DNA from: Bryoerythrophyllum caledonicum
Taxonomy: Eukaryota; Streptophyta; Bryopsida; Pottiales; Pottiaceae
Length of the DNA: 64,000 bases
Assembly: GCA_963971425.1 (NCBI GenBank)
Contig: OZ020520.1
Span: 6,676,553-6,740,552 of the forward strand
Reading direction: 5' to 3'
The notes under the pieces are model-generated. The model ran no database searches, had not been told where the DNA came from, and worked only from the letters and a program-made list of their open reading frames with translations. Positions 3,591-52,329 of the stretch are shown one piece after another; positions within the stretch are counted from its first letter, which is position 1, and each line of letters opens with the position of its first letter. A program made the position numbers and the translations under genes.

Positions 3591-3597
3591 AAATGGT

Positions 3598-3906
3598 CTA
3601 CGGAGTTCCACCATAAGCTTCTATACGCGTCTTCAAAAAAGCCCTGTGACGTTGCCTTGTCCATGTTGCGCCATTCTCTTGCATTAATGGACTCTCTAGA
3701 AGACGTTGCAAACCCCGCCTACGCACCTCGTCACTGTTTGATTTGGGCAGCGAGTGCCGGCGGGTGGGGGAAGGAGAGCATTTGCCTCTAGCAGCATCTC
3801 CTGACAAATTTCGGGGACGGAGACATTTACCGGATGGTTCCTGCACAATAGGCGCCACACACAATCCAAAGAAATACACTTTAGGTCGAATACTGCTACA
3901 CAACAC
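3598..3906 (-). CDS. Possible terminal exon, unknown protein
   Basis: An open frame ends in TAG at 3598-3600. Its last 50 residues (DEVRRRGLQRLLESPLMQEN, then GATWTRQRHRAFLKTRIEAY) have a balanced, protein-like composition, while the first part is Pro/Ser/Arg-rich and may be intron or UTR. It lies downstream of the frame at 4075-4476 on the same strand. I do not recognise a family. It may be the 3' exon of the same transcript unit. Confidence is limited because no homology or splice pair can be proved by eye. Confidence 0.35.
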   Translation of the reverse strand: MLCSSIRPKVYFFGLCVAPIVQEPSGKCLRPRNLSGDAARGKCSPSPTRRHSLPKSNSDEVRRRGLQRLLESPLMQENGATWTRQRHRAFLKTRIEAYGGTP

Positions 3907-4074
3907 ACATCAAAATTTAATCATTGAGATCCATCCTAGCGCACATTAGGTTGGATGGAGCTAAAATGCAGAAGGAAAGATCCACAGAGCACATTTAACC
4001 CCCAACAAAAAAACAAGCTCAAATGAACCAAAACTACATTAGTGCAATGTAGCTCAACAACAAACCAAAATTGT

Positions 4075-4476
4075 CTAGGCCAAAACATCGCAATAGTGCA
4101 ATAAATTGGAGGTCATCATAACACGCACCGCAAGCGAGCGTTGGGAAGTACCATCCCTTAAACCGTCGTAGAGAATACGCTTTGCTGGAGTACAATTATC
4201 CGGATTTAAAGGCGGGGACCCAGGAACTAAACGAGGCCACTGCGGCGAAGGTGAGTTGTTCCTATCATGAATTGGCTCCCGCGCAATAGGGCTTTCAACA
4301 ACTCCGTCGTCCACTACCATGGTCGAATAATCCATGGTTGATTGCACGGTTGCAGCAGAGTGCAACAAAAGCCCTTTACTCCGAAGAGAAAGGACGAACT
4401 CCTCTGGGCCTAGCAAGGAATCCACGGATGCTCGACAGTCACATACCTTAGAACAATAGATGAAAATTCCAATCAT
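4075..4476 (-). CDS. Possible exon, Pro/Ser-rich unknown protein
   Basis: Open frame of about 130 codons with protein-like segments SVDSLLGPEEFVLSLRSKG and LVPGSPPLNPDNCTPAKRIL. There is no known domain. A donor-like AAG|GTATGT lies on the minus strand near 4450, so the true exon limits may differ from the open frame. It sits between the phosphatase gene (upstream on this strand) and the frame ending at 3598, and may be part of a spliced gene with the latter. No function is proposed. Confidence 0.35.
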   Translation of the reverse strand: MIGIFIYCSKVCDCRASVDSLLGPEEFVLSLRSKGLLLHSAATVQSTMDYSTMVVDDGVVESPIAREPIHDRNNSPSPQWPRLVPGSPPLNPDNCTPAKRILYDGLRDGTSQRSLAVRVMMTSNLLHYCDVLA

Positions 4477-4679
4477 TCAAAATAGCACGACATTCCATCA
4501 GCAGTAGATATCCAATTCCCACAACAAACAAAGCGGTGAAACATCTCAGCTTCATTTATAAAAAAAATATACACAAAAAATGGTCCAACAAAATTTACAA
4601 CATCGAGCTGCAGTCAATCGATACAGTTTAGCTCTATGCGACCTAAAGTGTAAAAGGCATCTAAGCGTTTCCAACGGCA

Positions 4680-5881
4680 TTAAGAGCGGAGATTCTGAAA
4701 CGCTTGGATTGCGTTCCAGATACTCGCAGACTGACCACACGTCTTCTGATCATTATAAAACATCTCCCGGCCAGAGGGATGTTCGGCCCGGTACTGCGCT
4801 AGACCACCCGGAAATTGATGAAGGTCAGAGAGATATGGCAGCAATTCCTCCAACAATACAGAGTCGTCTCTTGCGCCAACATGTTTGTGCGACCATGATG
4901 GAAGAAGAAGGACGTTCTCCGGCAAATTGAGCATGTGCTTAATCGGGCTGTCGTCAATGACAAGAGTATTTGCCGGAGTATACTCACGACCCAACCTATT
5001 GAAGAGATGGCTCGATAAGGTCTTCAAGAAGATGTCCTTCTGAGTGCCAGATTCCTTCATGTAGAATGTTCTGCTACCGACTCTACGCTCGGGAACCCTA
5101 TCGCAACTCTCCTGACCAAAGATCTTGAGAGGGTACGAAGAACTATGCTAAAAAAGATAATTACATATTTGACGCGTTGTAGATTCCATCATCGAACTCC
5201 AGATCATGATGGTGGCAATCTTAGACAACTTTGTAAGGAATTCAGCACAACCAGGGCGCACTAGAACTAGTTTAGGGCCTACTTCGGCCGGCAGCGAAGC
5301 CGAGTGAATGGACGGGATAGAGTCCCTGGATCCTCTGGCCTGCCACGACGGCTCACACGTGCATAGAATCCCATTGAGGTCCAGCACAATGTTCAACCAC
5401 CTGCCCTCGATATCTGATTGGACTCTAGGTATTTCTTCTAGATTATTGGCATCATTTATTGATGCCTCGCTGACCTAGTTCGGAAACGCCAGGAGAACGA
5501 CCAATATTACTACAGATTCATTAACAACGACGAATCAACAATACGTAGAACGAAAGAGATAAATGGGGGGAGGAGTGATGGGGGAATGAGTGGAGTTCGA
5601 AAAGAGTTAGAAGAATACCTCGAGAACTTCATCGTCCTGCATCATTTCGTCTCGGGCACCCATCGATCCCAACGAACCCTGCATGCTGTCAAGGGGCCCG
5701 GAGTGCCCGACATCCATTTGGGGGCACGGTTCTGGGACAAGAAGAGGTGGCTCAGAATCATGATTGATCTCGTCTACGAGCACGGCTGAAACTTGGACGA
5801 CCTCTTCTATGACTGGGACTGCAGTTTGGACGACCTCATCTATGACTGGTTGAGCAATCGCGTCATCACCGAAACTTAGAT
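4680..5881 (-). pseudogene. FCP1/SCP-like HAD-family phosphatase, one in-frame TAG
   Basis: Two exons on the minus strand. Exon 1 (5881-5619) follows an acceptor TTTTTCCAG, encodes an acidic segment (VIDEVVQTAVPVIEEVVQVS) and ends at donor GAG|GTATTC. Exon 2 (5474-4680) follows acceptor GAACTAG. Both joins keep phase 0. Exon 2 carries HAD motif I as VLDLNGILC (5375-5395), motif II as ATIMIWSSM, and motif III as TLVIDDSPIKHMLNLP (about 4950). This is the order of the FCP1/SCP/TIM50-type catalytic domain, which removes phosphate from Ser/Thr such as the RNA polymerase II tail. Motif I has Asn where the second Asp usually is. A single TAG (5148-5150) interrupts the otherwise continuous frame between NYLF and HSSSYPLK. 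An upstream first exon with the start codon is not identified. Confidence 0.7.
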
Positions 5882-6086
5882 CTGGAAAAATTCAACAACT
5901 TCACCCTATCAGCGGATGGGCACAGAGGACACGGATACAAGTCACAGTGGTTAGATGTCAAGCAGTTTAGCTCGAGTCGAGCTGAAGTGCTCGCCGTGCA
6001 CTATAATATTAACAAAAAAAATACTGGAGTACAAAATTGGACATTTACAAAATGTTCTGCCTCTATACACTCGCAACTACGTTACA
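5882..6086. other. Intergenic or intron stretch with one palindrome copy
   Basis: Between the phosphatase exon and the stop of the next gene. It contains one slightly decayed copy of the TTTAGCTCGA palindrome at about 5963-5990. No other feature was seen. Confidence 0.6.
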
Positions 6087-7049
6087 CTAACATGACGATG
6101 ACCTGGGGACATCTGCGATAGATTCGTCCCGATCGAGCGACTTCGGAGGGGAAGAGGGGCGGGCCGATGCGGAAGGGAGAACAGGAAGCAATTGAGCCCC
6201 ACTGGAGACGGGGGAGGTACCCGACGGATATGGTAGCTGCAAATCGCGAGACGGACTCGCAGACCCGCCGTCCGGTGATGCGGGAGGCTGGGGGATTGCA
6301 GCAATAACTACGGGCGGTGCTGTGGCGGCAGTAGGCAAATTAGCCGACATGAATCTCTGCATCATGAGCATCATCTCGGCATGCCTCTGATCTTGGTCTC
6401 TCTACATTTCATCGTCACGCCTTCGCTGCAGATCCCTGAGCTCCTCGTCGCGCTCCGCAAGCCGCTGCTCCATCAACCTCATCCGGGTGGCCTCCTCTTT
6501 GAGCTTCTTCTCAAGGGAGATCAACCTGCTGTCATCCTGAGCGCTGCTCGCGATAGCCGACGGAGAGCGCGTGCTCGCGCTAGCAACCTTCCTCTTCTTG
6601 GCCGCCGGGCGAGCGGTTGAAGTGCCCAAGGTGGGAGCTGAATTAGGCCTGTCGGAAATCTCCAATGAATCCAACTCCGGGAAGTCGAGTCGTTGTCGCG
6701 AGGATGCGATTGTGTCTCCTGCTTCAGATTGAGAGGCACTCTGAAACTCAGGCGGAGTAGCGTCAACGAAGTCGTCCTGGGATTCATTATCCGGAGTGAC
6801 GGTGCTCGAGATCGGGCACGCAACCACATCGCTCAGCTCCACATCTTCCTCCTCATCGCCGAGGTCAATAATGGCTTTCCCCTTCCCCTTTCCAACGGCA
6901 TCTCCAAGCTCGGGGAAGATCTCCGAGTTGACGTTATACGCAGAAATATCGAAATCGGCCCGATCCAACGTCAAGGCGACCTCAAAGGCGTCGTCGAGAT
7001 CCTGCTCATCGGTGTCGTGAGAAATGGAGAATGCCTCCAGGTCCAGCAT
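6087..7049 (-). CDS. Exon C of three-exon gene: acidic then coiled-coil, Pro-rich tail
   Basis: Starts after acceptor GTGTGCAG at 7050 with MLDLEAFSISHDTDEQD and runs to TAG at 6087-6089. Order of parts: an acidic segment (LGDEEEDVELSDVV); a basic nuclear-localisation-like patch (ARPAAKKRKVASAS); a heptad-like, strongly charged helix (LEKKLKEEATRMRLMEQRL, then AERDEELRDLQRRRDDEM); and a Pro/Ser-rich tail (PPVVIAAIPQPPASPDGG). One TAG at 6402-6404 interrupts the coiled coil, between DDEM and RDQDQRH, in the same frame. It probably forms the C-terminus of the protein encoded by exons A and B. The composition suggests a nuclear protein, but the function is unknown. Confidence 0.6.
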
Positions 7050-7079
7050 CTGCACACCAATGGATTGAACAAGATTCAA

Positions 7080-7316
7080 TTTAGGTCGAGTCGAGCTAAT
7101 TAACTCACTACAAACAATTGCTGGTACGAAAACTAAGCCATTATAACTTCAAATCATACGAACGAAGTAAATGACATCCATAAAATTGTACAAGTAAAAG
7201 CCGACACTTTAGCTCGAGTCGAGCTAAAGTGACACCAAAAGAGCATAGGCAAGACCTCTTTGAAACTAAGAGGTCAGAAAGGGAATAAACAGTTTAGCTC
7301 GAGTCGAGCTAAACTG
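7080..7316. repeat. Intron with three palindromes
   Basis: The intron between exons B and C (7050-7329) contains palindrome copies at 7080-7100 (decayed), 7205-7231 (perfect, outer arm CACTTTAGC) and 7290-7316 (perfect, outer arm CAGTTTAGC). The two perfect copies differ at the third base of the arm, and in each case the partner base on the other arm differs to match. Confidence 0.9.
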
Positions 7317-7329
7317 CAGGGATGCTTAC

Positions 7330-8696
7330 CACACTCGCTGTCAGTAATTTCGTCCCGCCAAACAGTTGGACAACAAATTCCCCCTCTTGCAGAACAACTC
7401 TAGGACCTTCATGAAGAACTCCATCCTCAGCTTGTTCAAATTCATGGAGTACGCCAACTCGTTGTACTTGCGCAACTTCGTGTACAACACATGCTCTGGA
7501 GCTGCGTAGATCTTCTTTACGGCCGGGATCTCCGTAAGCTCCTTCTTGAAGAGAAAGAGGAGCCGAACCGGGTCTAGAGCGTTGTTGGTCTTCGACGCGA
7601 TCCCTCCGAGGCGCTCGTTCTCGGAGGGAAGATACTTCGACTGCAGCACATCGTATGCATGGCACAAGGACGGGCCCTCAGCAAACGCTGTCACTTGAAG
7701 GTGTGACTGCTCGTTGCCGCAAATGAAGAGCCAAACTGGAAGATCGGTGAGGGGAGGCTGCCCTTTCGATGCGAACATCGTCATGAACTCGTTGAAGAAG
7801 GGCCTCTCCAACGACGACGATGACGTCCCAGAGAACCTAGGGATGTTCCGAAAGTCGATGATGCCGAGCTTCACATTGCAGCCCAGGTTGCGCCACGAAT
7901 CCGAAGGCCACGTCCCGAGCGAATTCGTTGCCGCCTTGTAAGAACGGAAGTGCAGGGCTCCCACTGGTGAAACGAACCGCGACCGCACATCGATGAAGAC
8001 TTTGAAGAACTCCTTCGCGTACGGAGAGAGATCTTCACATTTGCAGTTGCGAAACTGCGTCTACCTCGAGTTGGCGTAGTACAAATCCGGTGGACCCCAA
8101 TCCAAGAGGGCACGCTTGGAGGCCTTGCTGACGTTGTAGTTCTTCTTGAACGTCCGCCAATTTGAACGTCTGTACGCTCCAGTGCTGTTGAAGAAGGCCA
8201 GCTTCGGCCTAATCAATTGAAGCTCCATCCGAGCGACCTCCTTCCTCTTCCTCCGATCCACCCAGTCCCGGGCTGTATAGCAATCCTCCAGCGCAGAATT
8301 TGGCAGCTTGATGACCACCTTAGGGTAGGGCAGTTTCCGAGATGGCCCTGATCGATTGAGAATGTGCTTGCACATTTTTGCGTGATCGGCTTCGGTCATG
8401 TTGCCGAGAAACTTGAAGAACTCGCGCGTCAGAACCCCATCCTTCTCAGGAACCCAAGACTTTGCGTCCTTGAACTTTGCCAAGGGCGTCGAAGTTGAAT
8501 CGACGTTGATGAGGTCGCCATGCGCCGCAGAAGAGATGACATCGGACCAGAGCTCGAAGGTTTCATCTGTCGCGGTGATGATCTTCACCTCGTTCGTAAT
8601 TGAAAGCTCCTTCGCCTTCCCGGCTTTCTTGAGCGCCGCCTGGCTCTTCGCAACGTCGATCATTGCGAAGCGCTCACGAACCGCGTTAAGAAATGG
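7330..8696 (-). CDS. Exon B of three-exon gene, unknown domain
   Basis: Begins after acceptor TTCTGCGCAG (phase 0) with PFLNAVRERFAMIDVAKSQA and ends at donor GTG|GTAAGC at 7330. It encodes about 455 residues of well-balanced protein with no family I can name; sample segments are LIRPKLAFFNSTGAYRRSNW and LPVWLFICGNEQSHLQVTAF. Two interruptions are visible. A TAG at 8061-8063 lies between YYANSR and TQFRNC in the same frame. A one-base shift lies in the G-run (C-run on plus, 7380-7384), after which the frame continues as EFVVQLFGGTKLLTASV to the donor. Neighbouring introns carry palindromes at 7080-7316 and 8773-8898. Confidence 0.6.
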
Positions 8697-8772
8697 CTGC
8701 GCAGAACATAAAAGGGTCGTTTGAGTATACAATAAAGCAGGAATATTAACATGTCCAGTAGAGTCCAAATAC

Positions 8773-8898
8773 TGCAAGTTAGCTCGAGTCGAGCTAACTT
8801 GCAACCCATGAGCAGACAATGACGATTTCTTATCTATACATATGAGTGTACAGATACAGAGCAAATTTGCACTTTAGCTCGAGTCGAGCTAAAGTGCA
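8773..8898. repeat. Intron with two palindromes
   Basis: The intron between exons A and B (8697-8921) contains two perfect copies: 8773-8803 with arm TGCAAGTTAGCTCGA and 8868-8898 with arm TGCACTTTAGCTCGA, each followed by G and the exact reverse complement of its own arm. The arms differ from each other at several positions, yet each copy is fully self-complementary. Confidence 0.92.
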
Positions 8899-8921
8899 TG
8901 AACTTGGTTATGATATATTAC

Positions 8922-10368
8922 CTCAAACTTCTTGTCATTTGCAATCTCCGCTACCGTTCTCTGACCTGACTTGTGAGACCCGCAAACGCCTGTGGCGGAG
9001 TGTTTCGGCATTGGTCTCCCAGCTTGGATCCACAAAGCACGGGAGCCGAGGATATTTGTTGCCCACGTCGGCTTGAACTGGACCAAATGATTCACACGAT
9101 TATAATACGCGGAAATCTTCCTCAACTTCTCCGGATCTTGCGTCCAGACAATGTAACATTGCCATGTTCGGAAGTGCCTTCTCATCACCTCCGGAACGTT
9201 GCCGTTAATCATCTCCTTCGAGGCAGCAACGCTATGCTGGCCGTTGATGATGTAGAAGTCGCAGTCGCTGAGCTCCTCCACAGTCGTCGGCATAGTGTCG
9301 AGCTTCGGCATGACGCAGAGAGTCTGCTTCTTCGTCTTGTCTGGCATTTGGAGGTAGTAATGCTTCAACTCCTCCATGCCCCGAGGCTCAAACGCACGGA
9401 TCGTCTACACCGGCGGTGCATTATGCAACCTCATCACGTCAAGCTCGATCTTCATCTCTCTCTCGTCTTTGAAAAAGCAGCTCTGACACTCTGTCCAGAA
9501 GTTCTGGTAAATCTGTTGGACGTTGTTGTAGTCGATTGTCTCTCCGTATCCGAGCGCCTTGGAGAGCTCTGAGAGTGCAGAGGCCATCGAATTGGCTAGC
9601 TCCTCCTTTGATACGAGCTTCGACTTCTTTCTTGAAGAGGTCTCCGGCTTCTTGGCAGCTGAGCGCTTCTTGACGGGGGAAGCAGACAACGTGTTGCGCA
9701 GAGTGCTTCGACTTGTTCTCGCACCTGGAGTTCTAACCGGTACCGACGCTTGACTCATGTCCTGGCTACCGGTCACGACCCCCGAAACCATTGAAAGTTC
9801 TATCGGGCGTCTTGCCGCGATATTCTTCGCCTTATCTAGAGCGGCAAAGGTACTCATTCTAGAGAGAATGACGCGCAGTTTATTAGCTATAGCCTTTGCT
9901 TTCAGTGGCTGTCCGCTACTAGTCTCCCATTTCTTAAGGGAGATCTCATGCTCGACCTGAGTCACTATTTCCTCAAATTTGGAAGACCTAAGAGAATCGA
10001 CTAAATCCAGGATACAGAAGGGAGATGAACTATTGTTTACTATAATAGTAAAGAAATACGGATCTAAGGACTCAGTGGTCGTCTCACACGACAACTTAAC
10101 GTGATCGTTATCTTCGTGGACTACATCAGTAACTTTGGTCTTGAAGTCCATGTGCTGGGGATCGACGATAGCACTAGCGAAGGTCTGACCAAACACTAAA
10201 TGATCCGTATAGGTCGCCCACAAAAGCGTCCACTTCAGTGTCATCGATGGGTCCTTCAGCTCCCAGCAGTCTAAGTGGTTGTTGTCGTCCCCATCGTCAT
10301 CGTCAACGTCGACAGGCTTTGGCTGGAAGAAGTGCTGCAGCTGCGACACCATCCTATCCCTCTCAGAT
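8922..10368 (-). CDS. Exon A of three-exon gene, ParB-like nuclease motif
   Basis: Follows acceptor GTTTGTGCAG at 10369 and ends at donor GAG|GTAATA at 8922 (phase 0). It encodes an acidic stretch (DVDDDDGDDNNH), a basic patch (ASPVKKRSAAKKPETSSRKK), and then a region around 9222-9250 reading FYIINGQHSVAASKEM. The form hydrophobic-x-G-Q-H followed by small residues resembles the ParB/Srx-like nuclease signature (usually DGQHR or GHHR). The residues after it (IVWTQDPEKLRKISAYYN) are unrecognised. A TAG at 9405-9407 (APPV then TIRAFEPRGM) breaks the frame just before the ParB-like part. The first exon with the start codon must lie upstream and was not found. DNA binding or nuclease activity is inference only. 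Confidence 0.6.
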
Positions 10369-10440
10369 CTGCACAAACACGAAACAGAGCAAAGATATTA
10401 GATTGCTCTATTGATCATCCGATTAGGACGGCGAGGTCAC

Positions 10441-10790
10441 ACATTAGCTCGACTCGAGCTAAAGTGTACCGATATTCAAGTATGTGAGTAATACTCTACA
10501 ACAAAATTTAGTCATTTAGAACGTTCTCTTAGACGCTTACAATCAACTCATGCCTACTTCTCGTTCAACTTTCAGAAATGTGGGAGAGCTTCAGTTCCCC
10601 CTTAAATCACTCACGAACCTCACTCTTTGAGGTTCTCAAGTGGTTGAAGCGGGACTGAAGCTCTTGCACGATTTATGAGAGGTGAACGGAAAGTAGACGT
10701 GAGTTGAGTTAGGAGACTGCAATTACACCAATGTATCAATGTTGTATTCAAGTTTTAGCTTCATCTTTAGCTCGACTCGAGCTAAAGTGC
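10441..10790. repeat. Palindrome copies upstream of exon A
   Basis: Two copies with centre base C: 10441-10467 and 10763-10790. They flank the first foldback MITE. They lie in the presumed intron or promoter region upstream of the minus-strand gene. Confidence 0.85.
10544..10706. mobile_element. Foldback MITE, copy 1
   Basis: About 163 bp forming one imperfect hairpin. The left arm runs from CAACTCATGCCTACTTCTCG to ACGAACCTCACTCTTT. The right arm starts GAGGTTCTCAAGTGGTTGAA and ends at TAGACGTGAGTTG. The inner part GAGCTTCAGT pairs with ACTGAAGCTC. There is no coding capacity. A close second copy lies 160 bp away, so this is a dispersed or locally duplicated miniature element. Confidence 0.8.
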
Positions 10791-10867
10791 TCATGCATGG
10801 AATGCATAGCTGAACAGTTCTGACACTTGCAGTATTCATTCAAACGACTTTCCTATACATTTTAATT

Positions 10868-11029
10868 CAAATCATGGCTACTTCTCGTTTAACTCTCAGA
10901 ACTACGAAAGAGCTTCAGTTCACGCTTCAATCACTCACGAACATCACTCTTTGAGGTTCTCAAGTGGTGGAAGCGAGACTGAAGCTCTTGCACACATGTG
11001 AAAATATAACGAGAAGTGGACATGAGTTG
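10868..11029. mobile_element. Foldback MITE, copy 2
   Basis: Same hairpin element as copy 1, similar along its whole length (shared GAGCTTCAGTTC, CTTTGAGGTTCTCAAGTGG, GACTGAAGCTCTTGCAC). Its ends are CAAATCATGGCTACTTCTCG and GAAGTGGACATGAGTTGG. The differences from copy 1 are scattered, so the two are not a very recent duplication. Confidence 0.8.
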
Positions 11030-11102
11030 GGTCGTCGGTATCATTGGATTACTATACATTTGGACTGTGTAAAGTCCTAATGTTGTTGTGTTTGAGTTGT
11101 TC

Positions 11103-11636
11103 TCACTTTAGCTCGATTCGAGGTAAAGTGTGTAGGCTTTACAGAGAGGCCATGTTTTATTTTAAACCCAGTGTTTAAGAGTTTATATTAAGATTTTATT
11201 TTGAGGAGTCGCTTTTAGCGCAACCGAAGACGTACGCAGTCGTACATTTAGCTCGAGTCGAGCTATTATGTGACCTCGATAGTGTATTATAGTCCACACT
11301 TTAGCTCGAGTCGAGCTAAAGTGGGACTTTTCTGTGCACATTTGGCACACTTACGCTCTAGTTGCGCCAAAGTACGCTTTCGTGTTTGCTTCATTGATCA
11401 CACTTTACCTCGAGTCGAGTTAAAGTGTGGCCAGATGTGCACAGAAAAGGTCCACTTTAGCTCGACTCGAGCTAAAGTGTGGCCAAAGGTGCACAGAAAA
11501 GGCCCACTTTAGCTCGACTCGAGCTAAAGTGTGGATATTAGTGCACAGTGGAGGCACACTTTAGTTCGAGTCGAGCTAAAGTGTGGACAATAGTGCAATA
11601 TGGATTTCCCACATTAGCTCGACTCGAGCTAAACTA
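11103..11636. repeat. Palindrome array 1 (period about 53 bp)
   Basis: Copies at 11103-11130, 11245-11271, 11297-11323, 11400-11428, 11453-11479, 11505-11531, 11556-11584 and 11610-11635. From 11400 on they are regularly spaced by 51-54 bp. The spacers are related to GGCCAAAGGTGCACAGAAAA. The spacer after the 11297 copy is the inverse of this (TTTTCTGTGCACATTTGG) and that palindrome has centre base G, while most of the later copies with the direct spacer have centre C. The array lies on the upstream side of the minus-strand gene. Confidence 0.9.
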
Positions 11637-11857
11637 TGTTCAATGAATAGCGTATTTATCGCAGATTGTACAGATTCGTCATTCGTTATATGATACTGAA
11701 GGCGTAGGGTTTAGGGCTCCTGGGTGAGAGTATGGATTTTACCTTTCAGCCATTGCTTATGAACCTTAATCCCAGACAAATTCTGCTGGAACTAGACTTC
11801 CAGCAACAACAATTACAAACCCACACACAAAATCAATCAAAGTAGCACATGGAAACC

Positions 11858-12130
11858 AAAACATTGAAATCTTTCACATTGAAATCAACACTTTGAAATG
11901 GGCACATTGAAATTCAGCACTTTGAAATAAACACATTGAATTCAGCACATTGAAACAATGACATTGAAACCAGCACATTCAAACTAGCAAAAAGTAGCAC
12001 ATTTACACCAGCACAAACCAGCACATTTAAACTAGCACAACAAATATCCACAAACCACCACAAAACCACCACATTCAAATCACCACATTCAAATCATCAC
12101 ATTCAAACCAGCACATTGAAACCAATACAC
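11858..12130. repeat. CACATTGAAA minisatellite
   Basis: Imperfect tandem motif of about 14-16 bp based on CACATTGAAACCAG and drifting to CACATTTAAACCAG and CACAAACCAC. It has no open frame of interest. Confidence 0.85.
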
Positions 12131-12344
12131 ACTCTCAACTACGTGGTGACACATACATCAAAAGCAATGCTACACATATATTATGTTTCAACACATCATA
12201 TCAAAAGCAAAACTACACAAATATCAAAAGAAATGCAAGAGTGAATGAGTGCACTTACCTTTAAAACTGAGAAATCCGACTGGAAAAGCTGGAAGTCTTG
12301 TTACTTGTTCACGTCAATCCTCCACGCACGGCCGTTTCAGACTC

Positions 12345-12605
12345 TACGTGCTCACAGAAACTCACAGAAACTCACACTCACTTACAGAAACTCACACGCT
12401 CACAGAAACTCACACACACTCACAGAAATTCACAGACACTCACAGAAACTCACACACTCACAGAAACTCACACAAACTCACACACGCTCACAGAAACTCA
12501 CACACACTCGCAAAAACTCACACAAACTCACACAAACTCTCACAAACTCACACAAACTCTCACAAACTCACACAAACTCTCACAAATCTCACACAATCTC
12601 ACGCA
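12345..12605. repeat. ACTCACAGAA simple-sequence tract
   Basis: Irregular repeats of CTCACAGAAACTCACA, then CTCACACAAACTCTCACAAA. All three plus-strand frames are open here only because the repeat lacks stops, so I do not call a gene. Confidence 0.9.
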
Positions 12606-13605
12606 AACAGCCCTAAACTCTGGCGCTACAGTGTACACGAAGTCACACAACAACAAATCGCACGTCCTACAAACCCTATGCGCAGGAAACCCTAGACTCC
12701 AGAAATTGCACGCGGAACCTATACGCAGCGCTACAGTGTAAAAACATAACAATCCCTGTAGATAACGAAACTAACACAAACCAACGCATCAACTCACAAA
12801 ACTCACAAAACATCAACGCCTGGAAGTACACGGAAAACCTGGACTGCAACGAAAAGAATAGAAAAATGGCTCGCGCCACGACTTCGTGGGGAAGTTTCTA
12901 GGCCACCTAAAGCCGTGAGGGTCGAAACCCTGTGGCCGTTTGGTGGTCCCGAGATACCCTCGGGATACCCTTTGCGATATTGGGGTGTAACTCCCGGGTA
13001 TTATGCCGGATGCTCCACAAATCCTAAACCTTCGTTACTGATACCCGGACTTTTAAGAAGCCAATTTAATTTTACCAGAATAAGTTCAAGATATTACGCG
13101 CCTGTAGTATTTGTGTACTCGTAAATTTCCAACACAATTTTTCGGAGCCATTAACACTACAATTTTGCATATTTTGGGGCAATGAACACGTAGCAAAAGG
13201 AAAGTGATTATTTCCAATTTCATTCGTATGATCTCAATTAAAACTTCTAAATTGACATTTTCTCAATAATACACAAACTTAAATTGGACGAAAGTGAACG
13301 TCAATAGTATTTAGTGTTTAGTTTTCTTTCATGGTTTTAGTGGATCAACTGGCTTTCACTTCACTCGATTTCAATTTTTGCATTACACAAGGAGTAAATT
13401 CATTACCATCGATATATATAAGTTCCTCCTACACCAATTATTAGGTGAAGCACACTTAAAAGAGTTTTAAAGCTACGATTTTAAGATTCTATTACTTTGA
13501 ATTCAAGTTTTGCTTTTTTATGAGTTTGATATTAATTTCTATGACAATCGAACAGACAATAGGTATGTTAAGACCACATCTTGCAATTGTATAATTATAA
13601 AATAA
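12606..13605. other. No gene seen
   Basis: 12606-12900 contains two copies of GCGCTACAGTGTA about 106 bp apart. 12900-13050 is a short GC-richer stretch (GATACCCTCGGGATACCC). The remainder is AT-rich. I find no convincing frame, RNA or transposon end. Confidence 0.5.
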
Positions 13606-13616
13606 ATGCCAATGCA

Positions 13617-13713
13617 TGCTTTAGCTCTAATGGAGCTAAAGTGTGCGTATTTGCTTTATAGTTCCCTACATTTACTGATGGTGTACACTTTAGCTCTAAT
13701 AGAGCTAAATTGT
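13617..13713. repeat. Second palindrome subfamily, site 1
   Basis: Two copies of a related palindrome with core AGCTCTAATGGAGCT instead of the CTCGA core (13617-13645, 13686-13713). They are separated by TGCTTTATAGTTCCCTACAT and GTGATGGTGTACAC-like spacer sequence. The same spacer type recurs at 15353-15455 and 21459-21632. Confidence 0.8.
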
Positions 13714-15240
13714 GAATTTTTTCTGTACTTTTCACTTCATTTTGCTTTTACTATAACGGTACAAATACAGTTGTTAGAGCATCTCCCCCCCTGACAAAGA
13801 ATTTTCCACGCCAGCGGGAAGGTGCCCAAGTTTGAGATGAAGTGAGGGGGGTCACCCTTTTCCCCCCGCACCGTCCCCGAATTGGCCACTGTGAGGGAAC
13901 GCCAGCGCCCAGCACTAACGCCATAGTAGGCTAATTTTTTGGGGGGTTTTTATTGATTTCTTTTAATTCCCTTGTGTAATTTCATGCTTGAACACATGCT
14001 CTCGGGGAATTTTGGTGTCCCCTGTACTTTTTGTAAATTTACTATTTAGAGGAACCGGCGCCGCCACTCCAATGGGCCGGGACACCGGCCTAGGCCTCAC
14101 AGAGTCGGTTTTACCGTGTTTATTCTTGCATTCCAGTCACTCGGCCCCGGTGGAGATTATCTTTTTCTAGTACACTATTTGTGAACAAGTTGGCAACTAG
14201 TTTTAGCCACCATTGTCCTGAATATTATCCCTCATTCGTTCACCTACTACAGTTCATTTCGTAATAGCCCTCTATCAAAACTCTTCCCTAGCACACAATT
14301 TTGATACTTGATAAATAGTATAAGCTCAAAGTCTTCAGCCTACCGGTCGCCATGCATTTATTCTTCGTCTCATCTTCAACCTCAATTTCATATCCTCTTA
14401 TCCACAACTATTCTCATTCCCATCTCTTGCATTTTCTTTACATTATTTAATATTATCTAATGAATATTTAATGTGTAATCAAATATTTAGCCAATAACTA
14501 ATGACTTTGTAATGATTTTTTAGAGGATAATTCATGTATATTGGTATATCTGTAACTTTTATGCACAATTAAAGAATATTGGAATTTTATTTATTGAATG
14601 TTGGAAGTTTTAAAAGTATATTTATGATAGTTTATTAATATTTATATATTTAATGATTATTTAAAGAGTATTAATGCACTGTTAATGAATAGTTAATGAA
14701 TAGTGCATAAATTTCTAATGTAAAATTAATGTGTATTTGAATATTTAATGAGTATTTAATTAATATTTACTGAATATGTAATGCACATTCAATGCGTATT
14801 ATGTGATGGATATCTAATGAGTATTTTACTTGTACTCCTATATTTATTGTATGTTTAAGTTTTTTCCTTTTCCAATATTCCTTTTTTTTCTCATTTTCGT
14901 TTCCAGAAGAATGTTCTTATATTTCCAGTCTTCTACTTGTAGTTTCATTTTCCCTCCATATTTTACATTCTACTTTGTCCAATTTTTTATATTTTCCTTT
15001 TGCTCCATACCTACGTCCGCTTATTCCCAAGCTCTTTCTTGCAAATTCTTCCTTTTCTACATGCACTCAACCCTTCTTTACTATGATGCTCAAGATGTAA
15101 TCAAATCATGATTAAGGTTCCCTACAATAATTGTCCACAAGTAAAAAACTTTATGTTCTACTATTTACTAGGATTGACATTTAGTGTAGTAGTTGGCATT
15201 TAGTGTAATATAGTTTTGTCACTACACTTATTGTAAATTT
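13714..15240. other. AT-rich stretch with AATATTTAATGA minisatellite; no gene
   Basis: 14455-14830 is a degenerate repeat of TTAATGAATATTTAATG motifs. 13780-14160 contains poly-C and GC-rich pieces (CACCGTCCCCGAATTGGCC). The short open frames here have T-rich, hydrophobic low-complexity translations and are not supported as genes. Confidence 0.6.
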
Positions 15241-15352
15241 TACAATTACTGTGTGCATTCCTATTTAGTTTCCACTTCTCTAGAAGCCATCTTCTGTATA
15301 CTGGAGCTACATAGTGCATTTTTGCTTTCTAATCCACTCCATTTAGTGATGG

Positions 15353-15455
15353 TGCACAATTTAGCTCTAGTAGAGCTAATCTGTGCATATTATCTTTTTA
15401 GTTCACTGCACCTAGTGATGAGGCACACATTAGCACGAGTGGAGCTAAAGTGTGT
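15353..15455. repeat. Second palindrome subfamily, site 2
   Basis: Copies at about 15353-15386 and 15423-15455, about 68 bp apart, with spacer TTTTTAGTTCACTGCACCTA. Downstream sequence 15530-15660 (TTTCCACTTCTAC, CATTTTGAACTCCGTAC) matches 21645-21760, so site 2 and site 3 are copies of one larger dispersed repeat of a few hundred bp. Confidence 0.75.
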
Positions 15456-15499
15456 GCACACACTCCTTTTAGTTCACTGCATGTAGTGATGGTGCACAC

Positions 15500-16900
15500 C
15501 TCTGCTAAAAACCGATCTGATGTTTGTGCAATGTGTATTTCCACTTCTACAAACAATCATTTTGAACTCCGTACTTCTCTTTATGGATAAGTATTTCACA
15601 AGTGGAATAGTAATCTTTTGAATTTTAAAAGGATTTTCATAATATGTGGATCTAAATCTCTAATAGTAATATTAAAAAACAAAAAAATATGACGATCCCC
15701 TAGTTTTTAGTGGATATGAAGTCTAAGTATTCTTGGTACCCTAAATCAATAATATGTGACAATGTGAAAAATAGATGAATGAATATGTAATCTTATTTTT
15801 CACTAGAAAAATAACATATTTTTTCACAATATCATTTGTTCTAATATTACTTCTATGTATTGAAAATACCACATTCCATACTATGTCATAGCAAAAGGTT
15901 TTTTAGGTTGCTTGATGTGCCGGCAATCGAGAAGTTTCTCTTTTGGCTCGCATAACTTTTAATGAAGACGTTCATTGAGAAAATAAATTACTTTTAAATA
16001 TGCCTCTCATTGAGAAAATACATTACTTATAAATATGCCTCATTACTTTTATCATCCTTCTACAAAATTTTGAGAATTTAAAATATAATTTGCGACCACT
16101 AGAACGTGCTCAAAAACTAATTATTCCATTTTTGCATGTATAAATAAATTCAAAATTACTTACATTACGAACATTAAATTATGCCTGATGCACTAAGTGA
16201 TACACTTTGTATTAGTTATATTTTATATTTTGATTATCCTTTTTTTGTCGTGAGGAGGTCTCTCCGTTTCTTATTTAAATCTTTCAATATTGTTCCACTC
16301 TCTATGTTTTACAAATGACAAAGTCTTCAATTTCACGTCAAATCATGAAATAAATTGTATATGGTCAAGAATTCTTCCATCTTTTATGTCATGCTTAGAT
16401 TGCCACACCCTAAAGTCATGAAAATACAATGTGAACTCAAGAATAAGATATTTTAATTGAAATATTAGTTTGCGCACATTTCAAGTCTTTGAGTACCTCT
16501 AAGTGGAAAGTAACCAATTTCAATTGCAAATCCAGACCATGGGGACATTGGGATTCTTGCCAAAGAATGCACATTCTAAATTGATGACGAAATAGTTACA
16601 TGACGCACATTTTTAAAACCCCAAAGAAATGATGTCCAAAGCATGTTTGAATACATTTGTTTTGGCTAAAAATACAGGTGCACATATAATATGTTTTTTT
16701 GTTTTTTTAAATGCTACTCGTCTGTTAAGGTCTTTGATTTCAACATAATAGATAAGTCCTATTTGGATTGTAATAAAAACTATTTCTAATCATCTCAATA
16801 TCTTCTCTACATTTCCCTATACCTTAGTTGAATTGTCAATATCATGAATCTTCAAAGTATTATTATATTGAAATGAATTGACATCAGAAGATATCACCTA
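15500..16900. other. AT-rich, no gene seen
   Basis: Stops occur frequently in all frames. Apart from the 15.5-15.7 kb part of the dispersed repeat, nothing is recognisable. Confidence 0.6.
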
Positions 16901-16911
16901 AACCAAGGATC

Positions 16912-17035
16912 CTAAACCGTGAACCCTAAACCTGAACCTAAATTCCAAACCCTAAACCCGAAACTCCAAACCCTAATCCCTAACCCTAAACCCTAAACCT
17001 AAACCTATCCAAAACCCTAAGCGTTACCCTAAAAC
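16912..17035. repeat. Degenerate CCCTAAA (plant-type telomeric) tract
   Basis: About 120 bp with many CCCTAAA, CCTAAACC and CCAAACC units (for example AACCCTAAACCCTAAACC). This is the complement of the TTTAGGG telomere repeat of most green plants. It is imperfect throughout, so it looks like an old interstitial copy and not a live telomere. Confidence 0.85.
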
Positions 17036-17113
17036 CGTGTATATAACTCGCATGTGCGAGTATATTCGAGGTATTGACCTTTCCTTATTTTAGTCAATCG
17101 GGAAATAGTTGAT

Positions 17114-17623
17114 TCAGTTTCCCGCTAAGATTTCGAATTTGCACTTTTTAGGGGCTGTGAAAAAGTCCCCCCCCCTGGGCCAATTATGAAGTTTCCTCCC
17201 GCCAATTCTGAAACGTTCGTGTGTCCGTGAGTGACCTCGCCGATACTCGAAAACTTTCTTCATTTGTTTCCTTCTCACTTTGGTTGTTGTGCAAGGTTGT
17301 TGTGGAGAGGCTTGGAGGTAGTATGACTGTCGGAGCTTGAAGAGGGCAACACCTATAGGTTGCGCACGGTTGAACAGGTGAGGCAACAACGTACCGGTTG
17401 TCTTCTTCATAAGGTACACAATGTATACTTCTTGCATTCTCCGTGCACAGTCTCTAGCAATTAGGATGTGATAATGTGTAGGGTTATTGCGCTGGTTCCA
17501 GCTGCTACTGTGATTTTGAAGCATCAGTGAGAGGGTCTTGATGACTAATAGAAAGATTTGGGTTGTAATATACAGAGAGTCAGATTCATAGGCGGAAGAG
17601 TTTTCCCATACGAATCCCGACAA
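17114..17623 (-). CDS. Unsupported open frame, hypothetical
   Basis: 169 codons; the first half is hydrophobic (IFLLVIKTLSLMLQ) and the second half basic (TKVRRKQMKKVFEYRRG). It has no family resemblance. It ends near a poly-C run. Its only attraction is position: it reads away from the 47-bp palindrome array, head to head with the gene at 18312. It may be chance. Confidence 0.2.
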   Translation of the reverse strand: MSGFVWENSSAYESDSLYITTQIFLLVIKTLSLMLQNHSSSWNQRNNPTHYHILIARDCARRMQEVYIVYLMKKTTGTLLPHLFNRAQPIGVALFKLRQSYYLQASPQQPCTTTKVRRKQMKKVFEYRRGHSRTHERFRIGGRKLHNWPRGGDFFTAPKKCKFEILAGN

Positions 17624-17644
17624 AAGCGCCGAGAATCGCGGAAG

Positions 17645-17999
17645 GACAGTTTAGCTCGACTCGAGCTAATATGTCTTACGTTCTTTCGAAGGACAATTTA
17701 GCTCGACTCGAGCTAAACTGTCGGTCAATATCATTATTGTCAGTTTAGCTCGAGTCGAGCTAAACTGTCCTTCGATCGAAGGTAAGACAGTTTAGCTCGA
17801 GTCGAGCTAAACTGTCGATTCAATATTGTAGGACAGTGCAGCTCGTATGTAGCTAAACTGTCCTACTGTAATGTTTCGACAGTTTAGCTCGACTCGAGCT
17901 AAACTGTCTTACCTTCTTTCAAAGGACAGTTTATCTCGACTCGAGCTAAACTGATCTACCTTATTTTCTATGTCTTTTTAACTCGACTCGGGATAAAAT
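17645..17999. repeat. Palindrome array 2 (47-bp period)
   Basis: Eight palindromes of about 31 bp start near 17645, 17692, 17739, 17786, 17830, 17878, 17925 and 17972. They are separated by 15-16 bp spacers, so the period is 46-47 bp. The arm is GACAGTTTAGCTCGA in the good copies. Spacers fall into two related sets. TTACGTTCTTTCGAAG and TTACCTTCTTTCAAAG follow centre-C copies, and their inverse CTTCGATCGAAGGTAA follows a centre-G copy. A further single copy is at 18128-18154. The array lies just upstream of the DUF7869-like gene. Confidence 0.92.
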
Positions 18000-18311
18000 T
18001 ACATTGCATCTTATAGTCATTAAATCAGGTCGGATCGGGCCAAATTGTCACTGTCGAGGGTGAGATTATTTTATATTCGGATTAAAACTAATCGCATTAA
18101 ATTTTCTACTTGTCATATAATACCGCATCAGTTTACCTCGAGTCGAGCTAAATTTGCCTGTTCTTTAATGTCAATTCACTTGTATCAAATATATTTTCAA
18201 GCGCCAGACTTTACCTCTTCATATGCTTCTTCATTGATGTCTATTCCTATAAGGTATTCACCTATTCTTATTTGGTAGGGTTATTTAATATTTACCTCAT
18301 TGGAATGCACA

Positions 18312-21146
18312 ATGTCGTCTTCGGAGGACGACGATGTTCATGTTGACGCTCCCGTGAACCCTGACCTTCCTGAGTTTGATGTTATTCCTCGCCGTCTCTG
18401 GGTTGGGATGACTGTTTCGCTTCACAATGGTTCGGGTGTTCGCGTTGCAGTGGGGTTGGTTCGCAATGTCCGGTCCAGTGCAATTCTAGGTTCCTCTGGT
18501 CCTCTTGGGGATTCGAATGTTGTAGTACAGGTGTCCAGTACTAAATTTATTCTAGAGGAAGCTCCTGATGAGTGGAGGTACTCGTTTAAGTCCTGGCCTA
18601 TTCAACAAGTCTTCTTAAACGGTGTGAGTCTCTTCCATCATTGCCTTAGGGACGTTTACAATGTCTGGTTGGTTGAGCGTAACAGACCTCTAGGTGGGAG
18701 CTCCCGTTCTTATGACAATTCCTCAAGGAATACACGTCCAACAGTGTCCAGGAATGCTGAATTTCTCATGACCCCTGTTTCCATTAACGCAGTTGCGAGC
18801 AATAGTTGTTGCAGTGAGAACTGTGTACAACACTATCTTAGAGATAAAATAAAAGTCCTTCGGATGCGCTTGTACTGTGAGACCATTGTGCAGTTTAGAA
18901 ATCATATCAAACTCGACGTTCATAGACAGTTTCATAGAAACTCTTCGGGTAGGAAGGTTGTGACCCTGGAGGGTGTGGACGTTTGTGCCCATGCTTGGAT
19001 GAAAATCATGGGTGTAAGTTCGAGTACTTTCTATCGGAATGCAAAGGACGCTGCCGCTGGTCATGCGGCTCAATACCATGGGAATACCGGTTTGCGTAAG
19101 CCTAGAGGTCATACGGTTGTGGCTACTGCCGCTCTTGGAGCCATTCTCGATAGACATGCGGACCACATGCCTCACAAGTCCCGTATTCTCCCATCTGGTG
19201 AGAAGGCTGTGGCAAAGGTCCTTCCTGCAAGTTTTAAGTGGAAGGATCAGATACCGCTTCTTGATGATCATCTCGTTGATTGTGGATTGCTGCCAATCTC
19301 AACCTCAAGCTTGAGTAAGATTCGGTGAGTGAGCTTTCCTAAGTCCTATGCCAAGAGAGGTGGAGACAACTTCGCCCGTTGTTCTACGTGTGACAAATAC
19401 CAGGATCAGAAGAAGCTTACTCAACCTGGAACACAAGCATCGGTGCTATGGCAAAAGAAGATGCAGGTTCACATCGATTTTGCCTTCTCACATCGGGACT
19501 TGTACTACTTGAACCGATTTCGATCAAAGTCGTCGCCCCAGGAGGTTCTTACCATCATGCATGATAAGATGGATCACTCAAAGACCGCCTCCCCAGTTTT
19601 TTCACATAAAACAAAGCACTTAGATGGGCTTATGAAGTTGCCTCTTGCAATCATAGGCATGCTTGCCCATGGTCATGTGGACCAACGTTACGCCCATTAC
19701 GGCCTTGATTTATACTTCCATGATGCCAATTACACGGTTGGGTCGTTCGCAAAACTATTGCGTGACTTGGAGGCGCCTCCGAAGTCATCGTCCCGGCAAC
19801 TCTTTCCTGAATCTTGCTCTCATCCATTGTATGCGGCCGTGTTACGGGGTGCAGAGTTGTGTTTGGATCCATTAGGGCAGATTCCTGATATCCCAGTTCC
19901 TGGGAGGCCTTTGCCACCAATATTGAACGTGCAAATGGACAATGCTGTTGGTGATAACAAAAATAGATTTATTTTCTGTTTTTGGTCTCTTCTTGTTGCA
20001 AAACGCATCTTCCGCGAGGTATATGTTAATTTTATGCTAGTTGGTCATACACATGATGATATAGATGCATTATTTGGACGTTGGAGTATGACACTGAGGA
20101 AGGAGAGTTTTCCAACCATTCCTTTGCTCATGAGGTCGTTCATGAAAAATGAGAGTGTTCCCACAATCCCGCATCTCATTCAAGAGGTTCCTGACTTTAA
20201 GAAATTCATTGGGGATATGATTGCAGACGGTGATGAAGCTTTGCAAGGTCATACGAAGGCTCATCAGTTCAAGTTTTATGTGGACTCAAGTGGTTGTCCG
20301 GTAATGAAGTTTAAAATCCTTTGCCATGATGAGGATTGGCTTCCTAAGGGAGGAGAAGGTAGTGGCATCAAATTGAGGAAGGAGGATTGTGAAGGGAGGT
20401 CTTTATGGCCTCGCGGAGAACCTGATGCATTGAAGCCTTCTACGATGCGGCATCTCCATGAAGTGGTGAAGGGACTTTCAGGATTCATCGATCACTGGGA
20501 GCAATCATCGCGGGAGTCTGTTGAAGCCCGTTCGCGTTTGGAGCCGCTATCGTATTATTGGCGCGATGTTAGAGATGCTCTGACACTTCCAATGGATACA
20601 CCGATATCATTGGAAGACGGCTTTTGGCCAACGACGCGAATTGCCCATGCCATTGAAGATGAGTTTTCAGCGGAGGGTGAGGTTCGCGAGGAGTACCGTG
20701 AAGATGAGCATTTTGTTGGCCAGAGACGCGATCGTCCACCTCCTTCTTTTAGAGTTGGCCGTGATCTTTTTGCTGGCTATTTTGTTGCATTGCGGCCTTG
20801 TGATGGGGACGAGCGCCCATTTTGGATTGCTCAAGCGGTTTCAGATTCTAGTTCTAATCCGGATATGCCAAACACCGTGCGTATCCAATTCTACCGCCCT
20901 ATATCGCACGATCGGGATGTTGTGAAGTTCTACAAAGATTGGGATACTGATAGCAACCTTCGTTGGACAATTGAAAAGGGGATAGCCATAACGTGGGAGA
21001 GTACCGATTCAATCATGACAGCATGGAAACCTAGGTCTTCAAAGAGGGATGGAGGTCATGTGCAAGATTCAACTACAAAAATTCCGAAGGGACAAGTAGC
21101 GATTATCAAGGCCTCTTTGGAAGCACTTGCCAGGTCCGAGTCGTAG
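18312..21146 (+). pseudogene. DUF7869-like, transposase-related protein with one TGA
   Basis: Start at ATG 18312 (MSSSEDDDVHVDAP); about 944 codons to TAG 21144-21146. The N-terminal third is unrecognised (WVGMTVSLHNGSGVRVAVGL). The middle has a CSTCDKYQDQ motif (about 19380). The C-terminal half has VHIDFAFS, then ILNVQMDNAVGDNKNRF (about 19925-19970) and NFMLVGHTHDDIDALFGRWS (about 20030-20090). QMDN..GDNKN plus VGHTHxDID is the signature I know from the DUF7869 family, which has an RNase H-like fold and transposase-like acidic residues. One TGA at 19326-19328 splits the frame between SLSKIR and VSFPKSYAK. CGA to TGA would explain it. The same bases look like a donor (G|GTGAGT), but no intron is needed because the frame continues. 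Palindromes flank it on both sides. Confidence 0.7.
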
Positions 21147-52276: not shown

Positions 52277-52329
52277 TTTGGTGCTTCCACTAAGAGCGCC
52301 TTGGGGCTACTTATTTGGTCAAGACAAGA

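What the first reader, a model, noticed from the sequence alone, without database searches (positions are those of the whole stretch)
5963..18154. Palindrome family whose outer arms vary but stay self-complementary
More than twenty copies share the inner arm TTAGCTCGA, a single G or C at the centre, and the reverse complement. The bases further out differ between copies (CACTTTAGC, CAGTTTAGC, GCAAGTTAGC, GACAGTTTAGC), yet in most copies the opposite arm differs to match. Independent mutation would break pairing, so the hairpin is either maintained (structure-dependent copying, gene conversion between arms, selection on RNA or DNA hairpin) or made anew by a mechanism that copies one arm onto the other. 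I know of no named element of this form.
Basis: partly seen in the sequence, partly recalled or inferred. Interest (0 to 1): 0.85.

Follow-up and report, generated by a model that had tools for sequence, protein, structure and literature searches.

The report
Flipping palindromes inside a giant transposon
The palindromes are conserved, repeated control-like sites inside an 18.8 kb jumping gene present in hundreds of copies, and their single central base flips between G and C far more often than ordinary mutation explains, as if the palindromes were repeatedly inverted in place.

Summary
The palindromes are real but not free-standing. They are 38 positions (22 within one mismatch of the core) inside one 18,821-bp DNA transposon, window 3307-22127, with 28/29-matching terminal inverted repeats and a 4-bp target duplication. 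The 19-bp core occurs 4292 times in the 437-Mb genome. Arrays lie upstream of both large genes; others lie in presumed introns. At single-copy sites the arms change several times more slowly than their flanks, which suggests cis-acting, probably protein-bound dyads (inferred, about 0.55). Outer arms do co-vary between sites to offset 15, but on a tree of 8 copies arm changes are mostly uncompensated: 108 one-arm, 13 two-arm. New finding: the centre base changes between G and C about five times as fast as flanking G/C positions at single-copy sites, in all combinations between sites, and is rarely A/T. One asymmetric site also exists as its reverse complement in 15 of 100 listed copies. This suggests arm-guided minute inversion. 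Closest systems: VANC motif arrays of VANDAL transposons, piggyBac 19-bp palindromes, chloroplast hairpin inversions.

The parts
3307..22127 (.). 18,821-bp DNA transposon that carries the palindromes
   Evidence: Homology with other copies starts at 3306-3307 and stops at 22127-22128; copy E4 aligns over 3307-22127 at 95.5%; ends; coordinates checked
3307..3335 (+). left terminal inverted repeat
   Evidence: 28 of 29 bases match the reverse complement of the right end
22099..22127 (-). right terminal inverted repeat
3303..3306 (.). 4-bp target duplication TTGA, left
   Evidence: TTGA on both sides; of the 5 copies with both ends read, window, E3 (TAAT), E4 (CATC) and E5 (CCTA) match, E2 does not
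22128..22131 (.). 4-bp target duplication TTGA, right
10444..11632 (.). 11 palindromes upstream of the minus-strand gene: 10444, 10767, 11108, 11248, 11301, 11352 (degenerate, 6 mismatches), 11405, 11457, 11509, 11561, 11614; 11401-11633 is a 52-bp tandem array
17651..18151 (.). 10 palindromes upstream of the plus-strand gene: 17651, 17698, 17745, 17792, 17838, 17884, 17931, 17978, 18025, 18133 (17838 and 18025 degenerate); 17641-17953 is a 47-bp tandem array
8779..8892 (.). two perfect palindromes (8779, 8874) in a presumed intron of the minus-strand gene
   Evidence: intron inferred from frame breaks and splice-like ends only
7081..7312 (.). three palindromes (7081, 7209, 7294) in a presumed intron of the minus-strand gene
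   Evidence: intron inferred
5967..5985 (.). imperfect palindrome whose mismatches are identical in the 7 copies that carry it
13621..13708 (.). palindromes of a CTCTA type, about 70 bp apart (13621, 13690)
15361..15448 (.). two further palindromes of the 70-bp-spaced group (15361, 15430)
21464..21812 (.). palindromes of the 70-bp-spaced group (21464, 21536, 21609, 21794; the last two weak); 21464 is the site seen in inverted form
3881..4646 (.). three decayed palindromes (3881, 3946, 4628)
6402..10352 (-). large gene A of unknown family, several presumed exons; the window copy has an in-frame stop that the 6 other copies aligned there lack
   Evidence: ORFs; no Pfam match above cut-off
4680..5147 (-). 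piece of gene C, similar to NLI-interacting-factor phosphatases
   Evidence: PF03031, E 8.4e-07 in the window, 7.5e-18 in copy E2
18312..21146 (+). gene B with DUF7869 domain, candidate transposase; the window copy has an in-frame stop that the 6 other copies aligned there lack
   Evidence: PF25273, E 1.7e-41

Best explanation
Shown: the palindromes are fixed internal positions of a multi-copy 18.8-kb terminal-inverted-repeat transposon, in DNA upstream of and between its reading frames. Shown: at 9 single-copy sites and in the two arrays the arms change several times more slowly than adjacent DNA; this is not clear for the 70-bp-spaced group. Shown: the centre base changes between G and C above the flank rate for that change. 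Inferred: each good palindrome is a dyad-symmetric binding site for a dimeric protein, most likely encoded by the element, acting on its promoters or silencing state as VANC does on VANDAL elements; density is raised by tandem duplication. Inferred: because the arms are perfect inverted repeats, replication or repair sometimes uses one arm in place of the other (hairpin or template-switch copying). This inverts the middle, visible only as a G/C flip when the arms are perfect, and occasionally copies outer flank from one side to the other. Ordinary one-arm mutations then erode the outer arms.
For: Element. Placement. Constraint: at 9 single-copy sites pairwise divergence is 0.044 (offsets 1-5), 0.008 (6-9), 0.079 (10-13) against 0.20-0.23 beyond 14; arrays 0.074, 0.074, 0.139 against 0.18-0.30. 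The four fastest 300-bp bins (0.213-0.338, mean 0.106) all hold palindromes. Centre, tree of 8 copies: C<>G is 20 of 25 changes from G/C at the centre against 84 of 394 in flanks (p 3e-9); single-copy sites alone 6 of 8 against 33 of 155 (p 0.0026). C<>G per G/C position 0.75 against 0.15 at single-copy sites (Poisson p 0.0015), 0.87 against 0.13 over 23 G/C-centred sites; selection alone cannot raise a rate above the neutral one. Genome-wide core centres: G/C 4292, A/T 198. First 100 listed: site 7294 C 68, G 32; site 7209 G 49, C 49, A 1, T 1; site 8779 G 89, C 10, T 1; all four G/C combinations occur for each pair of sites, the rarest resting on one or two copies. Site 21464: E5 is the reverse complement of the core but for one base; of 100 listed, all on C1, 76 native and 15 inverted, none with the other allowed mixtures except T.G.A 5, C.G.A 3 and one A centre; the inverted 11-mer occurs nowhere in the 8 copies. 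Imperfect site 11108: centre T in 99 of 100 listed, the one change T to A, its complement.
Against: No protein was shown to bind the site. Structure predictions of genes A and B failed (mean pLDDT 33 and 29); the only hint of a DNA-binding domain is a sub-threshold Xre-like HTH match in gene B (E 0.22). In the 70-bp-spaced group core and flank divergence are alike (0.072, 0.000, 0.080 against 0.076-0.101; at 15361 the core is worse than its flank), as at array site 11614 (0.205 against 0.197). G/C flips could come from conversion between palindromes sharing the core. The inverted 21464 form could have arisen stepwise, since T.G.A and C.G.A intermediates exist, and may be one old event. A flip occurred at imperfect 5967, while perfect sites 8779, 8874, 11509 and 13690 show none among the 8 copies; 7081, 10767 and 18133 show only a transition. 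Arm-to-flank ratio is as low on the youngest terminal branches as elsewhere (0.27 against 0.29), which selection on dead copies would not give. Transitions at the centre are not significantly fewer than in flanks (p 0.19-0.38).
Confidence: 0.55

Rival explanations
1. Symmetric binding site only: the centre must be G or C for a dimer, which reads both alike; flips are ordinary mutations filtered by selection, with no inversion process.
For: A/T centres are rare in intact cores (198 against 4292); the arms are constrained at single-copy sites.
Against: Selection cannot raise the C<>G rate above the neutral one, yet it is about 5 times the flank rate at single-copy sites. The inverted core at 21464 changes three bases together. 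Sites with A or T centres persist unchanged: 11108 T in 7 copies, 13690 A in 6.
Confidence: 0.2
2. Ectopic gene conversion between the many palindromes of the element homogenises the arms and swaps the centres; no in-place inversion is needed.
For: Many sites share the core exactly; sequence around the arrays diverges fast; 8874 in copy E6 has partly taken the 8779-type arm.
Against: Fixed one-arm mismatches at 5967 and 11108 are not overwritten in any of the 7 copies read. The inverted 21464 11-mer occurs nowhere in the 8 copies in element orientation. Flips occur while site-specific outer arms and flanks stay intact (exact-match rows).
Confidence: 0.3
3. RNA hairpins: transcripts of introns and leaders fold, and selection keeps the pairing (small-RNA source, splicing or silencing decoy).
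For: Perfect inverted repeats with arms of 13 bp or more lie in presumed introns and upstream regions.
Against: No clear strand bias of broken pairs: G.T 7 and A.C 7 at single-copy sites, 6 and 5 in the 52-bp array, 12 and 9 in the 47-bp array, 3 and 1 in the 70-bp group. Pair-to-pair two-arm changes are 5 of 121 events. No Rfam family reaches its gathering score in the window.
Confidence: 0.1
4. Passive satellite or foldback repeat: a few founder palindromes amplified without function.
For: Two tandem arrays (47 bp and 52 bp) and a few arm classes; the 70-bp-spaced group shows no clear extra conservation.
Against: At single-copy sites arms are several times more conserved than spacers; separate single sites keep fixed places in hundreds of copies.
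Confidence: 0.07

Closest known systems
VANC-recognised motif arrays of VANDAL transposons in Arabidopsis (PMC5735166, passages read)
   Same: Short motif repeated many times in noncoding parts of one transposon family; sites in introns and upstream of genes; multiplied as fast-changing tandem repeats; motifs evolve together.
   Different: VANC motifs are 8-9 bp and arrayed in one orientation; here they are dyads up to about 31 bp with a toggling centre. No direct comparison with VANC proteins was made; Pfam shows only DUF7869 and a phosphatase-like gene.
19-bp palindromic repeats in the ends of piggyBac, bound by two cysteine-rich domains of a transposase dimer (PMC11707139, passages read)
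   Same: Palindromic repeated site of the same size in a DNA transposon; shows that a dimer can read such a dyad.
   Different: piggyBac sites lie at the ends; here the good copies lie kilobases inside, next to genes and in presumed introns. Duplications are TTGA, TAAT, CATC, CCTA, not a fixed TTAA (TTAA recalled); gene B matches DUF7869.
Hairpin-associated minute inversions of chloroplast noncoding DNA (PMC2903610, passages read; Kelchner and Wendel 1996 seen only in its reference list)
   Same: Sequence between inverted repeats occurs in both orientations, recurrently.
   Different: Loop of 25-27 bp between 18-bp repeats in the trnH-psbA case; here the loop is one base, in a transposon with hundreds of parallel copies.
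Template-switch mutations that create and maintain hairpin stems (PMC8794818, abstract and outline read)
   Same: One event can copy one arm onto the other; would give matched outer arms and inverted middles.
   Different: Described there for RNA genes and their compensatory changes; here two-arm changes are rare in recent lineages and the centre flip is the main trace.

Membership tests
TIR (cut-and-paste) DNA transposon | terminal inverted repeats flanked by a target-site duplication | tested here: met
   28 of 29 bp TIR and 4-bp duplication in the window copy; duplication in 4 of the 5 copies whose two ends were read: window, E3, E4, E5 yes, E2 no
TIR (cut-and-paste) DNA transposon | DDE transposase | tested here: inconclusive
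   Gene B carries DUF7869, a domain of unknown function; structure prediction failed; no PDB sequence match up to E 1
VANC/VANDAL-like anti-silencing system | family-specific motif dense in noncoding regions, introns and upstream regions | tested here: met
   the introns are presumed, and that other repeats lack the core was not tested beyond the shared spacing of listed hits
VANC/VANDAL-like anti-silencing system | VANC protein or VANDAL (MULE) transposase | tested here: inconclusive
   No such Pfam match in the pieces of genes A, B and C scanned; no comparison with VANC sequences was made. It may work like, but is not filed as, a VANDAL
VANC/VANDAL-like anti-silencing system | motif-bound protein causes loss of DNA methylation | not testable with these tools
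   needs binding and methylation data
piggyBac | TTAA target site (recalled) | tested here: not met
   duplications TTGA, TAAT, CATC, CCTA
Hairpin-associated minute inversion | middle sequence occurs in both orientations between intact arms, recurrently | tested here: met
   G and C centres at intact sites with all four combinations between sites, though exchange between sites is not excluded; three-base inverted core at 21464, number of events not settled
RNA hairpin kept by compensatory change | excess of two-arm over one-arm changes | tested here: not met
   108 one-arm and 13 two-arm changes, 5 pair-to-pair
Known RNA family | Rfam match above gathering score | tested here: not met
   0 matches in the window

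The most novel reading that the evidence does not exclude
The transposon's control sites maintain themselves: perfect palindromes provoke template switching or hairpin inversion, which resets one arm from the other, keeps the binding dyad intact even in dead copies and extends its outer arms. The central base then serves as a visible counter of inversion events in hundreds of parallel copies.
Probability: 0.22. Interest if true: 0.75.

Novelty: new variant of a known kind. Interest (0 to 1): 0.5.

Why it matters
Inversion of a short perfect palindrome is normally invisible because it looks the same afterwards; a one-base centre makes each event visible. With hundreds of copies in one genome (446 matches at site 7294; 420 at 21464; 381 at 11108) the rate of arm-guided inversion could be measured directly. 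If the sites bind an element-encoded regulator, this is a second, palindromic design of the repeated-motif control known from VANDAL elements.

Tried and rejected
Rejected: stand-alone foldback or MITE elements, because the spacing of hits recurs in other copies of the 18.8-kb element and two groups are tandem arrays. Rejected: known RNA gene or tRNA. Rejected: continuing compensatory evolution as the main process. Led nowhere: close relatives of the DUF7869 reading frame in viral contigs (none), in the PDB (none up to E 1) and in papers (term DUF7869, 0 papers). AlphaFold models of genes A and B were useless, so no fold search was made. Paper searches for a prior description showed no title on this element in their listings; of those only PMC11707139 was opened. 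The organism was not identified. Dropped rows: of 40 rows in the scan, I left out 8219 and 21218 as chance-like. In one search I used 12 of 17 sites; one search repeats it with 13 and with all 17. Array alignments are uncertain: 5 of the 9 two-arm events there, 2 of them pair-to-pair, lie in one doubtful site, 11614 of copy E3, so single-copy sites are quoted apart. Match totals are not pure copy counts: the pattern (569) also matches the same place on the other strand with 3 mismatches, and that (516) also matches site 11301 with 3; the 100 rows listed are all exact matches, and 90 exact and 10 with one mismatch, so the centre counts are not affected.
Full report
WHAT IS THERE. The half-site occurs 37 times in the window (0.51 expected) and the palindrome with up to two mismatches 26 times (mean 0.00 in shuffles). 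A looser scan, up to six mismatches over the first 24 kb, gives 40 rows, of which I keep 38 as family members, from 3881 to 21794. The window belongs to a 437-Mb assembly held as G000; the exact 19-bp core occurs 4292 times in it.

THE PALINDROMES ARE PARTS OF A TRANSPOSON. The spacing of genome hits repeats the spacing in the window. Seven places on contig C1 were fetched. Homology to the window starts at 3306-3307 and stops at 22127-22128; one copy aligns over the whole length at 95.5%. The ends carry a 29-bp inverted repeat (28 matches), and the window copy is flanked by TTGA on both sides. Of the five copies with both ends read, three others have matching 4-bp flanks (TAAT, CATC, CCTA) and E2 does not. 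The element is therefore an 18,821-bp terminal-inverted-repeat transposon. First-look candidates were 559 for an exon, 967 for the left end and 861 for part of the DUF7869 reading frame, of which 40 were scored in each search.

GENES. Gene A (minus strand, from 10352) has no Pfam match above cut-off. Gene C (minus, near 4.7-5.1 kb) resembles NLI-interacting-factor phosphatases. Gene B (plus, 18312-21146) has DUF7869 at E 1.7e-41 and a sub-threshold Xre-like HTH match (E 0.22); it is my candidate transposase by position and size only. The window copy has an in-frame stop in A and one in B that the six other copies aligned at each place lack; the reading frames of several other copies are broken elsewhere. 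Exon and intron limits are inferred from frames and splice-like ends; there is no RNA evidence.

WHERE THE PALINDROMES LIE. Eleven lie upstream of gene A (10444-11632, partly a 52-bp tandem array), ten upstream of gene B (17651-18151, mostly a 47-bp array) and five in two presumed introns of gene A. Others are 5967, a mostly weaker group with about 70-bp spacing at 13.6, 15.4 and 21.5-21.8 kb, and three decayed ones at 3.9-4.6 kb.

CONSTRAINT. In an alignment of eight copies, nine single-copy sites have pairwise divergence 0.044 at offsets 1-5, 0.008 at 6-9, 0.079 at 10-13 and 0.20-0.23 beyond 14; the arrays have 0.074, 0.074 and 0.139 against 0.18-0.30. The 70-bp-spaced group does not follow: 0.072, 0.000 and 0.080 against 0.076-0.101. 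The four fastest 300-bp bins of non-core sequence (0.213 to 0.338, mean 0.106) all hold palindromes, while arms of the nine sites differ by 0.032; the right terminal repeat is lower still (0.023). Site 5967, mismatches included, has no arm difference among the seven copies that carry it, which favours sequence recognition over pairing there; whether it is coding was not tested. Against simple selection: on the terminal branches of the four youngest copies the arm-to-flank ratio is 0.27, against 0.29 elsewhere.

ARMS: COMPENSATED OR NOT. Among 132 palindromes within one mismatch of the core in eight copies, pairing exceeds the column make-up at offsets 10 (112 against 101.1), 11 (93 against 48.7), 14 (66 against 47.0) and 15 (81 against 33.8), also at 17 (46 against 33.7) and 18 (41 against 34.2), not at 12, 13 or 16; these rows are related. 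Reduced to majority arms of 12 sites, own-arm pairing at offsets 10-15 is 53 of 72 against 42.3 after shuffling, reached by 24 of 20,000 shuffles; offsets 14-18 alone are not significant (20 of 60 against 17.2) and 16-20 are below chance. With all 17 sites it is 80 of 102 against 63.1, 1 of 20,000. Along the tree it does not: single-copy sites have 22 pair-breaking, 5 pair-making and 1 other one-arm change, and 1 two-arm change; the 70-bp group has 18 and 3, the arrays 62 and 9. I infer that most matched outer arms are old features of each site.

THE CENTRE BASE. On the copy tree, 26 of 28 sites had enough copies. Changes from G/C at the centre are 20 C<>G and 5 transitions; there are two more changes from A centres. 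Flanks of the same sites show 84 C<>G and 310 others (p 3e-9); single-copy sites alone 6 of 8 against 33 of 155 (p 0.0026). C<>G changes per G/C position are 0.75 at the centre and 0.15 in flanks at single-copy sites (p 0.0015), and 0.87 against 0.13 over 23 G/C-centred sites. Intact cores genome-wide have G/C centres at 4292 sites and A/T at 198. Pattern searches list the first 100 matches for sites 7294, 7209 and 8779: C 68 and G 32; G 49, C 49, A 1, T 1; G 89, C 10, T 1 (tallied). Linking listed sites of the same copy (35, 40 and 34 links) gives all four G/C combinations for every pair of sites, the rarest class resting on a single copy in two of the three pairs, so states changed repeatedly or were exchanged. 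At the imperfect site 11108 the centre is T in 99 of 100 listed of 381 matches, and A once. At 21464, whose core is asymmetric, copy E5 carries its reverse complement but for one base. Of 100 listed of 420 matches, all on C1, 76 are native, 15 inverted, 5 and 3 are intermediates and 1 has an A centre (counted by eye). The inverted 11-mer occurs nowhere in the eight copies.

READING. I take the good palindromes as cis-acting dyad sites of the transposon, probably bound by a dimer and used in control of its genes or of silencing, by analogy with VANC motifs, which lie in introns and upstream regions of VANDAL elements and grow by tandem repeats (PMC5735166, passages). Binding is not shown. I take the centre flips as minute inversions guided by the arms, as known for chloroplast hairpins (PMC2903610, passages) and as template switching could give (PMC8794818, abstract and outline). 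Conversion between palindromes remains the main rival for flips at perfect sites.

WHAT IS AND IS NOT NEW. Repeated binding motifs, palindromic transposase sites (19-bp repeats of piggyBac, PMC11707139, passages) and hairpin inversions are each known. The combination, with a one-base centre that could report inversions in hundreds of parallel copies, I did not find in the searches, which were few and cover open-licence papers only.

I corrected the claim that arms are the slowest noncoding DNA, added the 70-bp group and 13690 as results against, lowered the copy counts, and marked the VANC protein test inconclusive.

Noticed in passing
15357-15661 and 21460-21769: A direct duplication of about 316 aligned bp inside the element (70% identical), each copy with palindromes of about 70-bp spacing.
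   Followed up: partly
4680-5147: A gene like an NLI-interacting-factor phosphatase is carried by the transposon (E 7.5e-18 in copy E2); captured host gene or element function is unknown.
   Followed up: partly
18312-21146: DUF7869 occurs in the large gene of a terminal-inverted-repeat element with 4-bp target duplication, which suggests the domain may belong to a transposase.
   Followed up: partly
38395-38590, 40423-40515, 41456-41596, 47539-47724, 60912-61124: Several G+C-rich arrays of about 21-bp period with units resembling CGCGCCCGGCC, scattered through the window.
   Followed up: no
52125-58519: LTR-retrotransposon-like reading frames: RNase H and integrase zinc-binding domains above cut-off, reverse transcriptase and integrase core below it.
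   Followed up: no
48538-49068 and 62034-63296: Two reading frames with DUF659, a domain I recall from hAT-like transposases.
   Followed up: no
135-686: DDE_3 transposase fragment about 2.6 kb left of the element.
   Followed up: no
38890-39089: 200 N in the window, within a minus-strand reading frame that has no Pfam match in the part tested, 39261-40115.
   Followed up: no
8707-9006, 11107-11706, 17707-18006: The 300-bp bins with the best palindromes hold the most divergent non-core DNA of the element, 2-3 times its mean, as if palindromes raise local mutation.
   Followed up: partly
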